Source: Methanofollis ethanolicus (lineage in GTDB: Archaea; Halobacteriota; Methanomicrobia; Methanomicrobiales; Methanofollaceae). Taken from it: a stretch of DNA of 64,000 nt. The notes below the pieces were generated by a model. That model was not told where the DNA came from. It saw nothing but the letters and a program-made list of their open reading frames with translations, and ran no database searches. The translations under genes were made by a program, and so were the position numbers. The stretch spans positions 2,395,470 to 2,459,469 of the forward strand of contig NZ_BCNW01000001.1 of assembly GCF_001571385.1 (NCBI RefSeq), written 5' to 3'. The first letter of the stretch is position 1; every line of letters begins with the position of its first letter. This document shows, piece after piece, positions 39,310 through 60,049 of this stretch.

Positions 39310-39800
39310 GCGTGAGATGCTCTTCTGGTTCAACGCGGCGAACCCCGGGTACATCGCCTTCCCCTCAAACACAGACCGGGGGTTTCACCCCCGGACCCCC
39401 GAAACAGGATTGGTTCCGGGAAGATAGGGCAGGGATCCCGAATAGGGTGATTGAAATGCCTCCGCCTATCCTGAGTGAGGGTCCGGAGGAACGAGTGAAG
39501 GGAGCATGAGAAAACGGAAAATCGAAGATTTTCTCGTTCAGGCACATCTTTGATGTGCACTGAGACGGAGTCTTCGAGGTAGTCCCCCGGCGCGAGATGC
39601 TGATCACCTGCCTTCCCCATACTGTTCGCCGGGGGACTGCTCGAAAATCTACGATTTTCTCATGCTCACTTCTTTCGCACAGCGAAATCTTCGGTTTCTT
39701 GACCTCACTTCGTTCGTTCCTCGAAAACCTACGGCCAGTAGCAAATCTCAGATATACCATTGACTAGAGTTCTTCGAGTGGTAGTCCCCCGGAGAACCGG
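39310..39800. repeat. Dispersed intergenic repeat, copy 4
   Basis: No gene is seen between 39206 and 39807. The segment contains cgggggtttcacccccggacccccgaaacagg, cctatcctgagtgagggtccggaggaac, aaaatcgaagattttc, gcacatctttgatgtgc, gagacggagtcttcg and two cagt/ggt-agtcccccgg blocks, the building blocks of the repeat at 1-450 in another order. It is the longest mosaic of the family here. Confidence 0.6.
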
Positions 39801-39807
39801 TAGCCTG

Positions 39808-40032
39808 TTACAGAAGAGATAAAAATTCGTCGAGAGAGATCCCGGCCTGAAAGAGAATTGTCTGAAGTGTCTTTGGAGCAAGCGTCTTTCCGGAGTGGAC
39901 GGGAACAGTGACGATGACGCCGCGCTCTGGATGGTGGAGGTATTGGTGGCTGCCTCGCATGCCGACCTCCTCAAAGCCTGCTCGCTTCAAGGCCCGGATC
40001 ACTTTCTCCCCTGTGGTTCTCGGGAGTTTCAT
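39808..40032 (-). CDS. hicA: HicA-family toxin, frame intact
   Basis: This 74-residue protein is a complete HicA mRNA interferase: MKLPRTTGEKVIRALKRAGF, MRGSHQYLHH with the catalytic His, GVIVTVPVHSGKTLAPKTLQ, then ILFQAGISLDEFLSLL. The ATG overlaps the stop of the hicB remnant (ATGA), which fixes the start. The gene lies just beyond an inserted tnpB element that has split hicB, so the toxin is left without an intact antitoxin in cis. It may be unexpressed, or neutralised by another HicB. Confidence 0.85.
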   Translation of the reverse strand: MKLPRTTGEKVIRALKRAGFEEVGMRGSHQYLHHPERGVIVTVPVHSGKTLAPKTLQTILFQAGISLDEFLSLL

Positions 40033-40082
40033 GCTGCGTTGCTCGTATTCAGGGGTACGGACACCTCAACAGGAATAGGCTT
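40029..40082 (-). pseudogene. C-terminal piece of the split hicB
   Basis: On the minus strand the 54 bases encode KPIPVEVSVPLNTSNAA and a stop that overlaps the hicA ATG. This is the family's usual HicB C-terminus. The N-terminal piece ends at 41315 with VAKKLG. Joining the two gives VAKKLG-KPIPVEV without loss or gain of a codon, so the sequence between is a clean insertion. Confidence 0.8.
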
Positions 40083-41314
40083 CCGTGACTGCTCCCCCTC
40101 CTCTCGTCGGGGGCATCCTGGGGTGTCACCCCTGAGATTGCAGCCCCAATCTCAGAATATTGATCGCCGCGTTCTGGTCGCGGTCCATCACCAACCCACA
40201 ATGCGGGCAGGAGTGCACCCGATCAGATAACGTCTTTGCGACGATCATTCCACATCTGGAGCACTGCTGAGATGTATTTCTGGGGTTCACAAGGATCACG
40301 CGTGAGCCAGCCTCTTCCGCTTTGCTCTCTGTGATCGAGATGAACATAGTCCAGGCAACATCGGCAATGCTTTTTGCCAAATGGTGGTTCTTTTCCATAT
40401 TCTTGACATTCAGATCCTCGAATACAATCGTACCGAACCAGTCCACCAATTGACGGGAGGTCTGGTGAGCAAAATTGAGCCGTCTGTTGGCGATCCGTTC
40501 ATGGATGTGTGCGACGATCTTCCGGGCTTTCTTCCGTTCAGGGGTTCCTGTCTCTACTTTCGAGAGTTTCCTCTGCGCTTTTGCAAGGGCCTTCTCGTCG
40601 GTACGGAAGAACCGGGGATTCTCGATCTTCTCTCCGTTCGAGAGGGTGGCGAAGGACTCCAGCCCAACATCGATCCCGACCGTTATCTCCTTCTGTGGGA
40701 GAGGGGAGGGATAGTACTCAACCGAGAAGCAGGCATACCACTTCCCGGTCGATGACCGTCGGATCGCGAGAGTTTTGATCGTCCCTTCAACCGGACGGTG
40801 AAGGACGATCCTCACGTCTCCGATCTTTGAGAGGTGGAGACGGTCTCCATCGAGTTTGAATCCATACTGTGGATACGTGAAACTGTCATACCGTCCTTTT
40901 CCCTTAAAACGTGGATAGCCGGAGTTTTCCCTGGCCTTTACGCGCCGGAAGAATGCTTTGAAAGCAAGATCCACACGCATGGATACATCTTGCAAAACCT
41001 GAGAATAGACAGTAGAAAGTTCTGGATGCTCCTTTTTCCAGAGAGGGATCTGACGTTTTGATTCGTAATAGGAGATAGAACGTTGTTCCTGTTCCCACGC
41101 GTTCTTTCGCAATACAAGCGTCTCGTTATAGACCCACCGGCAGACCTCCAGCGTCTGCTCCAGTCGAGAGACCTGAGATCTTGTTGGGTAGAGTCGGTAA
41201 CGATACCCTTTAGGCACAATGCCATTATGGAAGAGAATGAGTTATAAATAATTAGTATCGGTGGACGGGCTCTGTATCCCACCATTGAAATGGCGAGGAT
41301 TAGCCCGGTCTTGA
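40083..41314 (-). mobile_element. IS1341-type (IS200/IS605 group) element carrying only tnpB
   Basis: The ends are set by the two halves of the interrupted hicB: one flank is gttagga (minus strand, up to 41315), the other aagcctattcctg (from 40082). The element is 1232 bp, with no target duplication, as known for IS200/IS605. The end after tnpB has hairpin-forming sequence (aggggtgacacccc and gcccccgacgagaggaggggg). There is no tnpA, so movement would need a transposase in trans. Confidence 0.8.
40126..41217 (-). CDS. tnpB: TnpB, RNA-guided nuclease of an IS1341-type element
   Basis: This 363-residue protein has the OrfB helix-turn-helix N-terminus (YRYRLYPTRSQVSRLEQTLE) and a RuvC-like domain with Asp183 in VGIDVGLESFATL, Glu267 in IVFEDLNVKNM and Asp347 in MDRDQNAAINI. 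The zinc ribbon is CSRCG (319-323) and CPHCG (337-341). All catalytic residues are present, so the nuclease is likely functional. The guide RNA of TnpB normally comes from the 3' end of the gene and the adjacent element end, with the guide from flanking host DNA, here hicB. Length is slightly shorter than ISDra2 TnpB but usual for archaeal IS1341. Confidence 0.92.
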   Translation of the reverse strand: MPKGYRYRLYPTRSQVSRLEQTLEVCRWVYNETLVLRKNAWEQEQRSISYYESKRQIPLWKKEHPELSTVYSQVLQDVSMRVDLAFKAFFRRVKARENSGYPRFKGKGRYDSFTYPQYGFKLDGDRLHLSKIGDVRIVLHRPVEGTIKTLAIRRSSTGKWYACFSVEYYPSPLPQKEITVGIDVGLESFATLSNGEKIENPRFFRTDEKALAKAQRKLSKVETGTPERKKARKIVAHIHERIANRRLNFAHQTSRQLVDWFGTIVFEDLNVKNMEKNHHLAKSIADVAWTMFISITESKAEEAGSRVILVNPRNTSQQCSRCGMIVAKTLSDRVHSCPHCGLVMDRDQNAAINILRLGLQSQG

Positions 41315-41491
41315 TCCTAACTTTTTGGCGACCTCGATATACCCCGAGATTGCTTCTTCAATATGTGCCAGCGCCTCTTCCCAGGTAGACCCCTCGCTGA
41401 TGCAACCCGGGAGGGAGGGAACCGTTACGGTGTACCCTCCGTCTTCATTCTGCTCCATAAGAACGGTGTAGCGGAGACGAATATCAGACAA
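41300..41491 (-). pseudogene. hicB: N-terminal piece of the split hicB
   Basis: The frame starts at TTG 41491, with gaaggga about six bases upstream, and encodes MSDIRLRYTVLMEQNEDGGY, then TVPSLPGCISEGSTWEEALA and HIEEAISGYIEVAKKLG. After position 41315 it reads a few codons of the inserted element (SRPG) and stops. The HicB core is complete; about 17 C-terminal residues are lost. The truncated product might still fold, so partial function cannot be ruled out. Confidence 0.82.
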
Positions 41492-41516: not shown

Positions 41517-41720
41517 TCTGGCACTATATAGGAGTTCTGCAAAAGAGTGTCGCCCCGGAAACCCTGCCGGCAAAGGCAGCGAAGGCGAAAAAAGCCCAAT
41601 ATCTGGGTTTCAGGGGGTGAAAGGGGATCCGCACTTCTCCCTGTGGAATCAGGAGTAGCACCCGACAAAAGTACAGGATTTTTCCAAAACTTTTTATCAA
41701 AGAGGTCATCCCAAAAATGA
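41517..41720. other. Possible remnant of an IS end, unassigned
   Basis: No gene is supported. The stretch has an imperfect inverted pair, ccggaaaccctgccgg and ctgggtttcaggggg, and ends in aagaggtcatcccaaaa. The last 15 bases (gaggtcatcccaaaa) also occur at the inner edge of the IS5 fragment (34215-34229, minus strand). Both lie next to a copy of the dispersed repeat. This hints at a shared ancestral insertion, but it is weak. Confidence 0.3.
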
Positions 41721-41724
41721 CCGG

Positions 41725-42060
41725 AAACCTTACCATTACGATAGGAGAGTGGATGGCAGACTCCTCTTCAGAATATCGTGTTTACTCCTCCCTGGTCCAA
41801 TCATGAGCGGGGTGCGAGCGACAGCGAGCATGAGAACACAGAGAATCAAAGATTCTCTGAGCAGGCAAATGTTTCATTTGCTATGAACGGAAAATCGAAG
41901 ATTTTCCTGTGCGTGCATATCTTCGATGTGCCACGGACCGAAGGTTTTCGATTGCCCGGGAGAACGACCGAAGGGAGTCGATAAGACCAAAGATTTTCTC
42001 AAGCTCGCACCCCCCTCGGGATTGGCCCCGGAACGTTAGAGCAGAAGATCATCCCATCCC
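41725..42060. repeat. Dispersed intergenic repeat, copy 5
   Basis: The segment starts cattacgataggagagtggatggcag, which matches the repeat at 1-450, and then has gaa/aaa-centred palindromes: agaatc-aaa-gattct, caaatg-ttt-catttg, ggaaaatc-gaa-gattttcc and gcgagcgacagcgagc. Together with the sequence before 41720, no gene lies between 41492 and 42135. Confidence 0.6.
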
Positions 42061-59607: not shown

Positions 59608-59841
59608 ATGAAATACCTGAAGTACCGCGTCCTCCTCCGGAGAGAACCGGAGGGAGGGTATACCGTGACAGTGCCTTTGCTTCCCGGTTGCGTCACCTAC
59701 GGGGAGACGATCGACGAGGCGATAGCGATGGCGCGGGAAGCCATAGGACTCTATATCGAGGACCTCCGGGAGAAGGGCGAGGAGATCCCGACCGAGGAGG
59801 GACTGCTGGAGTACACCCTCACCGTCGAAGCCCATGCCTGA
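59608..59841 (+). CDS. hicB: HicB-family antitoxin
   Basis: This 77-residue protein reads MKYLKYRVLLRREPEGGYTV, TVPLLPGCVTYGETIDEAIA and MAREAIGLYIEDLREKGEEI, ending in an acidic tail. Fold and the G-G-Y-x-V and PGC elements match HicB. ATG 59608 directly follows aaggag, closer than usual, so ATG 59584 is a possible alternative. A tacttatag TATA-like sequence lies about 50-75 bases upstream. It overlaps hicA by 8 bp; that toxin gene is badly frameshifted. Confidence 0.85.
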   Translation: MKYLKYRVLLRREPEGGYTVTVPLLPGCVTYGETIDEAIAMAREAIGLYIEDLREKGEEIPTEEGLLEYTLTVEAHA

Positions 59842-60049
59842 GATTCCCGCACTCACGCCCCAGAAGGTCATCAGGGTCCTGGAGAAGAAGGGGTTGCCGG
59901 GTCAGGGGGAGCCATCACCTCTTCTACCATCCTGAGACAAAGCGTCGGATTGTCGTCCTGTCCATGGACGGGACCTGCCGGCAGGTACGCTTCTTGAGAT
60001 CCTCAGGCAGGCCGGGATGGAGCGGGAGGAGGTCCAGGACCTCCTGTAA
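59834..60049 (+). pseudogene. HicA toxin gene with several frameshifts
   Basis: The first frame reads MPEIPALTPQKVIRVLEKKG, the second RGSHHLFYHPETKRRIVVL with the GSH catalytic core, and a third AGTLLEILRQAGMEREEVQD with a stop at 60047. In order, they make a full HicA of about 72 residues. At least two frameshifts, one near 59897 and one near 59975, break it. The antitoxin upstream is intact. Confidence 0.8.

What the first reader, a model, noticed from the sequence alone, without database searches (positions are those of the whole stretch)
39808..41491. hicB split precisely by a tnpB element, leaving an intact hicA
The N-terminal piece ends ...VAKKLG at 41315 and the C-terminal piece resumes KPIPVEV at 40082; joined, they make a normal HicB. 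Between them lies a 1232-bp IS1341-type element with a catalytically complete TnpB and no target duplication. TnpB guides are normally read from host DNA next to the element's right end. Here that guide would start aagcctattcctgttg, and the target-adjacent motif would lie within aaagttagga at the left flank. If TnpB works, it would cut the empty hicB allele and so stabilise the disrupted state of an antitoxin gene, with a potentially free HicA toxin downstream.
Basis: partly seen in the sequence, partly recalled or inferred. Interest (0 to 1): 0.75.

Follow-up and report, generated by a model that had tools for sequence, protein, structure and literature searches.

The report
TnpB insertion element inside antitoxin gene
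A transposon-like element carrying an intact RNA-guided DNA-cutting enzyme (TnpB) has jumped cleanly into the antitoxin gene of a toxin-antitoxin pair in a methane-producing archaeon; the insertion is real, but it is an ordinary member of a known kind, and nothing shows that it frees the toxin or that the cutter is guarding the broken gene.

Summary
The insertion is real. hicB of a class 2 hicBA pair in a Methanofollis-group archaeon is interrupted by a 1232-bp IS200/IS605-group element with one intact tnpB; hicA is intact. Two same-genus genomes carry the uninterrupted orthologue (AAAGTTAG|GGAAGCCC), one shown syntenic. A second copy with its own empty site gives the same ends. Most left ends follow TTTAG; intact right ends finish GCAGTCAC, with a covarying RNA structure typical of a TnpB guide-RNA scaffold.

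The stabilisation idea is standard TnpB biology and only weakly supported here. The genome has no Y1 transposase, so excision, the usual source of empty sites, is not expected. The closest known empty alleles mismatch the guide at position 8.

A free toxin is not supported. The 63-aa truncated HicB keeps the confidently predicted core and lies at the lower size limit for class 2 HicB. hicA has lost its overlap with a translated hicB and has no nearby ribosome-binding motif. The locus decays in several relatives, usually through hicA. Verdict: ordinary IS insertion, mildly interesting context.

The parts
41525..41530 (-). TATA-box-like TATATA upstream of hicB (inferred promoter)
   Evidence: Read directly; the surrounding CTATATA stretch is kept in most same-genus orthologues. 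Not tested experimentally.
41300..41491 (-). Truncated hicB reading frame, 63 aa: HicB residues up to ...VAKKLG, then element-encoded SRPG and a stop
   Evidence: Pfam HicB_lk_antitox E 5.9e-13 for the N-part.
41317..41321 (-). GTTAG, target/TAM-like motif directly 5' of the element's left end
   Evidence: TTTAG at 11 of 16 distinct left ends of this subfamily; GTTAG, CTTAG, TTCAG, TCCAG and TTTGA once each.
40085..41316 (-). Complete element, 1232 bp (GATCAAG...GCAGTCAC)
   Evidence: Uninterrupted hicB in G008 and G010; ends shared with other copies; a second copy with its empty site gives the same ends.
41253..41316 (-). Left end with hairpin (CGCCATTTCAATGG(C/T)GGGA region)
   Evidence: First 64 bases conserved in several same-genus and Methanoculleus-type copies.
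40126..41217 (-). tnpB, 363 aa, intact; D...E...D motifs and CxxC...CxxC zinc ribbon present
40085..40145 (-). Predicted guide-RNA scaffold: nested helices, the outermost pairing GGCTGC... with ...GCAGTC at the right end
   Evidence: 35-copy alignment: 97.6% of cells paired; 17 cells with changes on both sides against 3.0 expected from shuffles.
40069..40084 (-). Predicted 16-nt guide, ggaagcctattcctgt, read from hicB
   Evidence: Position set by the right end GTCAC; length by analogy with PMC8612924. Not shown to be transcribed.
40029..40084 (-). hicB C-terminal remnant (last 17 codons and stop, ...KPIPVEVSVPLNTSNAA*)
   Evidence: matches intact orthologues.
39808..40032 (-). hicA, 74 aa, intact; its ATG overlaps the hicB stop (ATGA)
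   Evidence: Pfam HicA_toxin E 4e-20; 93-95% identical to HicA of G008 and G010.

Best explanation
A tnpB-bearing, tnpA-less element of the IS200/IS605 group inserted once, without target duplication, 3' of a GTTAG motif inside hicB of a small (class 2) hicBA toxin-antitoxin pair. SHOWN by sequence comparison: the element's exact limits, the uninterrupted orthologues, an intact TnpB with its catalytic positions, a conserved and covarying right-end RNA structure, and the absence of a Y1 transposase from the genome. INFERRED: insertion was made by a TnpA acting in trans or by an ancestral copy with tnpA; TnpB may bind an RNA whose guide starts ggaagcctattcctgt and could cut an uninterrupted hicB entering on foreign DNA, but without TnpA the element should not leave empty sites of its own. 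INFERRED for the toxin: the insertion was tolerated because hicA is poorly expressed (it lost its overlap with a translated hicB and has no nearby ribosome-binding motif), or because the 63-aa HicB still works, at a locus that is eroding in the genus.
For: Uninterrupted orthologue in G008 and G010, syntenic in G010. Same ends in other copies and a second empty site in G004. Domains and catalytic motifs. Right-end covariation. TnpB tree places this copy with TTTAG-type elements, among them copies with tnpA. No PF01797 in own genome while 6 of 12 genus genomes have it. Decay of the same hicBA in G001, G002, G009 and G011. A Sulfolobus TnpB tolerates any base at TAM position -5 and does not cut its own TTCAC-flanked locus (PMC11043419).
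Against: No RNA or protein data. TnpB activity, guide transcription and hicA expression are all untested. Only one genome per species was searched, so strain-level polymorphism of the insertion is unknown. The transposase could lie in the small unsampled part of the genome (99.7% complete). The covariation counts come from related copies, part of the aligned region is tnpB coding sequence, and slid-by-3 alignment also gives some double changes.
Confidence: 0.8

Rival explanations
1. Active guarding: TnpB with a hicB guide cuts every uninterrupted hicB allele it meets, so the broken antitoxin gene is maintained and HicA acts as a free toxin.
For: TnpB is intact; the right-end RNA structure is conserved; the nearest empty alleles carry GTTAG, and a change at -5 is neutral for one archaeal TnpB. 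Retention and gene drive by TnpB are described for other elements (PMC11870625).
Against: No transposase in the genome, so no excised copies to repair. Nearest empty alleles mismatch the guide at position 8; more distant ones lack both motif and match. No empty target exists in the own genome. Free HicA activity is not indicated.
Confidence: 0.1
2. The truncated 63-aa HicB remains a working antitoxin, so the insertion is nearly neutral.
For: The predicted fold of the G010 HicB is confident only for the core (three strands and helix 37-58); residues 66-76 are under pLDDT 50, and the insertion removes the residues after 59. Class 2 HicB is reported at 63-103 codons (PMC10865869). Solved HicB proteins match mainly the core.
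Against: The tail (PIPVEVSV) is conserved in the close orthologues, and most HicB paralogues also end in a strand-like stretch. From general knowledge, HicB domains have a last strand after the helix. The truncated frame ends in four foreign residues.
Confidence: 0.3
3. Dead fossil: neither TnpB nor hicA is expressed, and the region is simply decaying.
For: No transposase; the only other near-complete copy in the genome has a frameshifted tnpB; the hicBA pair is broken in several relatives.
Against: tnpB, its catalytic motifs and both element ends are intact, and hicA is intact with mostly synonymous differences from its orthologues.
Confidence: 0.35
4. A paralogous HicB neutralises HicA in trans.
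For: A second hicB lies in the same window at 59611-59841, about 53% identical, next to a frameshifted hicA.
Against: Only about half the residues match; cross-neutralisation between such distant pairs was not tested.
Confidence: 0.08

Closest known systems
IS200/IS605-family elements with TnpB (ISDra2; Sulfolobus islandicus TnpB elements)
   Same: TnpB with OrfB_IS605 and TNB domains; insertion 3' of a short T-rich motif; no target duplication; structured right end followed by the guide; right end finishing in TCAC as in the Sulfolobus elements.
   Different: No tnpA in this element and no Y1 transposase in the genome; preferred motif TTTAG rather than TTGAT or TTTAA; activity not tested.
tnpB-only (IS1341-type) elements
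   Same: Single tnpB between element ends.
   Different: Its TnpB clade and left end are shared with elements that carry tnpA, so it looks like a tnpA-less derivative of an IS605-type element.
Class 2 hicBA toxin-antitoxin modules (PMC10865869)
   Same: hicB before hicA, small HicB without a DNA-binding domain, overlapping genes.
   Different: hicB is interrupted after residue 59; class 2 pairs are stated there to be experimentally unanalysed.
TnpB-driven retention and gene drive (PMC11870625)
   Same: Guide derived from the insertion site, so uninterrupted alleles are potential targets.
   Different: Without TnpA no excision is expected here; nearest alleles carry a guide mismatch; not demonstrated.

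Membership tests
IS200/IS605 group with TnpB | TnpB with RuvC-type catalytic residues and zinc ribbon | tested here: met
   OrfB_IS605, TNB domain, D...E...D motifs, CxxC pairs.
IS200/IS605 group with TnpB | Insertion at a fixed 3' side of a short motif without target duplication | tested here: met
   Uninterrupted sites at two loci; motif at other left ends.
IS200/IS605 group with TnpB | Structured right end joined to a flank-derived guide | tested here: met
   Structure by covariation and a fixed right end with differing flanks. The RNA itself was not observed; no Rfam family matched.
Autonomous IS605 (tnpA + tnpB) | Own Y1 transposase | tested here: not met
   No tnpA between left end and tnpB; no PF01797 match in the genome.
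Active TnpB homing or gene-drive element | RNA-guided cleavage of the uninterrupted site followed by repair from the element-bearing copy | not testable with these tools
   Needs RNA sequencing and cleavage assays.
Class 2 hicBA | hicB (63-103 codons, no DNA-binding domain) upstream of hicA | tested here: met
   Orthologues encode 76-aa HicB followed by 74-aa HicA; definition from PMC10865869.
Functional toxin with inactivated antitoxin | HicA expressed and active while HicB is inactive | not testable with these tools
   hicA is intact by sequence; expression and HicB function unknown.

The most novel reading that the evidence does not exclude
A TnpB element that keeps an antitoxin gene broken by cutting incoming intact alleles, leaving the toxin gene available for a new role or a new antitoxin (such as the 63-aa remnant or the paralogous HicB at 59611-59841).
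Probability: 0.06. Interest if true: 0.6.

Novelty: new member of a known kind. Interest (0 to 1): 0.25.

Why it matters
It gives a base-exact, naturally empty-site-verified example of a TTTAG-type archaeal TnpB element in methanogens, with a defined motif, right end and predicted guide that can be tested directly. If TnpB proved active, it would be a case where a selfish nuclease biases the fate of a toxin-antitoxin pair. As it stands, the case is one of many IS insertions in an eroding locus.

Tried and rejected
Rfam search of the region gave only chance matches. A search of the family returned only the same 12 genomes as the genus, so motif statistics outside the genus rest on genome-contig loci. 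Y1 transposase loci in relatives were checked for this element's ends; only the G009 C83 remnant carries the left end. The own genome was searched for another target of the guide; only the element's own right flank was found, preceded by TCAC. Literature searches found no reported HicB disruption by a TnpB element in the held library; the main paper on TnpB retention was not held. PADLOC hits of TnpB to Cas12f models reflect shared ancestry and were not taken as a CRISPR system. An assembly artefact was considered unlikely: the locus is inside a 2.7-Mb contig and the next most similar copy is only 84% identical.

Full report
1. What is there. On the minus strand the window holds, in order, the start of hicB (TTG at 41491), an insertion, the end of hicB, and hicA (40032-39808). 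Pfam names the three proteins HicB-like antitoxin, IS605 OrfB/TnpB with a Cas12f-like TNB domain, and HicA toxin. TnpB is 363 aa and keeps the catalytic motifs GIDVGL, FEDLN and DRDQNAA and two CxxC pairs. hicA encodes 74 aa without interruption.

2. Exact limits. In same-genus genomes G008 and G010 hicB is uninterrupted and 97% identical in protein. Their DNA reads AAAGTTAG|GGAAGCCCATTCC. In the window AAAGTTAG is followed by GATCAAG, and GCAGTCAC is followed by GGAAGCCTATTCC. The element is therefore 41316-40085, 1232 bp, without target duplication. In G010 one contig carries the flanking genes and both hicB parts adjoining, without the element. A second copy, in G011 (L038), sits after TTTAG and ends GCAGTCAC; G004 carries its empty site, which aligns without a gap across the joint.

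3. The element family. The left end GATCAAG follows TTTAG at 11 of 16 distinct insertions; GTTAG (here), CTTAG, TTCAG, TCCAG and TTTGA occur once each. Intact right ends finish GCAGTCAC (two copies differ inside the motif, GGGGTCAC and GCGGTCAC), with different DNA after it each time. A sister group of solitary tnpB copies has a different left end after TTTAC, among them the second copy in this genome, whose tnpB is frameshifted. In a tree of TnpB proteins the window copy falls with the TTTAG-type copies. Some of these carry tnpA sequence directly upstream of tnpB (L146, L129, L144; read), so this element is best seen as a tnpA-less member of an IS605-type lineage. No Y1 transposase (PF01797) is found in this genome, while six of twelve genus genomes have one.

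4. The guide RNA. An alignment of 35 right ends folds into nested helices that join the right-end GCAGTC to an upstream G(A/G)CTGC. For the named structure 97.6% of cells are paired; 17 cells carry changes on both sides against a shuffled mean of 3.0, and sliding the partners lowers pairing to about half. The control is not a probability, since the copies are related. A guide read from the flank would start ggaagcctattcctgt, by analogy with ISDra2 (PMC8612924) and with a Sulfolobus TnpB whose guide follows UUCAC (PMC11043419). No RNA was observed.

5. Could it cut an intact hicB? The nearest empty alleles have GTTAG and match the guide except at position 8 (T against C). For the Sulfolobus TnpB the -5 base does not matter; a single guide mismatch strongly reduces editing next to a weak motif but is tolerated next to a strong one. 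So cleavage is possible but uncertain. The other four intact hicB alleles in the genus lack both motif and match. In this genome the only site similar to the guide is the element's own flank, preceded by TCAC instead of TTAG. Because no TnpA is present, excision and thus the retention cycle described for TnpB (PMC11870625) should not operate; only incoming DNA could be a target.

6. Is the toxin free? The truncated frame makes 63 aa. A model of the intact orthologue is confident for three strands and one helix ending at residue 58, and not for residues 66-76 (mean pLDDT 72); its best structural matches are HicB proteins. Class 2 HicB proteins of 63-103 codons are described, and the class is stated to be experimentally unanalysed (PMC10865869). 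On the other hand the PIPVEVSV tail is conserved in the close orthologues, and from general knowledge HicB domains end in a strand, so loss of function is also possible. hicA starts within the hicB stop (ATGA), a coupled arrangement. In the window the ribosomes on hicB stop inside the element, those on tnpB stop 94 nt before hicA, and no ribosome-binding motif lies near the hicA ATG. Low hicA translation is therefore plausible (inference).

7. State of the locus in relatives. The pair is intact in G004, G008 and G010; hicA has a premature stop in G002, is split by an insert in G011 and is missing in G009; both genes are frameshifted in G001. Elsewhere mostly the toxin is lost; the window is the only one of these genomes with the antitoxin split and the toxin intact. 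The hicB N-part is 99% identical to G008/G010, but the hicB C-part plus hicA only 91-92%, a mosaic that I cannot explain.

8. Verdict. An ordinary, well-delimited IS605-group insertion with a possibly active TnpB. The interpretation that TnpB stabilises antitoxin loss and frees HicA is possible in part but not supported by the evidence at hand.

Noticed in passing
window 59611-60047 (+): A second hicBA pair has an intact hicB and a hicA broken by apparent frameshifts: the reverse of the locus studied.
   Followed up: partly
L002 (own genome C1:538977-540115): The other near-complete copy of this tnpB family has a TTTAC-type left end and a frameshifted tnpB.
   Followed up: partly
L014, L038, L102, L146 against L002, L039, L048, L103-L106: Two left-end/motif classes of one TnpB family, TTTAG|GATCAAG and TTTAC|GAAGAAAACAGG, track the TnpB tree: a natural set for studying how the motif preference changes.
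   Followed up: partly
L013:1725-2186: hicA of G011 is split by an insert of about 240 bp with inverted-repeat-like ends and a GCTCC direct repeat.
   Followed up: partly
window 41317-41491 against 39808-40084: hicB N-part is about 99% identical to G008/G010 with almost no synonymous change, while hicB C-part and hicA are 91-92% identical: possible recombination tract.
   Followed up: partly
window 39486-39722 and 41791-42031: Spacer repeats (GAAAATCGAAGATTTTC, GAGCATGAGAAAA and relatives); stretches of both spacers match many places in G008 and G010.
   Followed up: no
L101 / G009 contig C83: An element with the TTTAG-type left end, a tnpA remnant and tnpB: an intermediate between tnpA+tnpB and tnpB-only forms.
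   Followed up: partly
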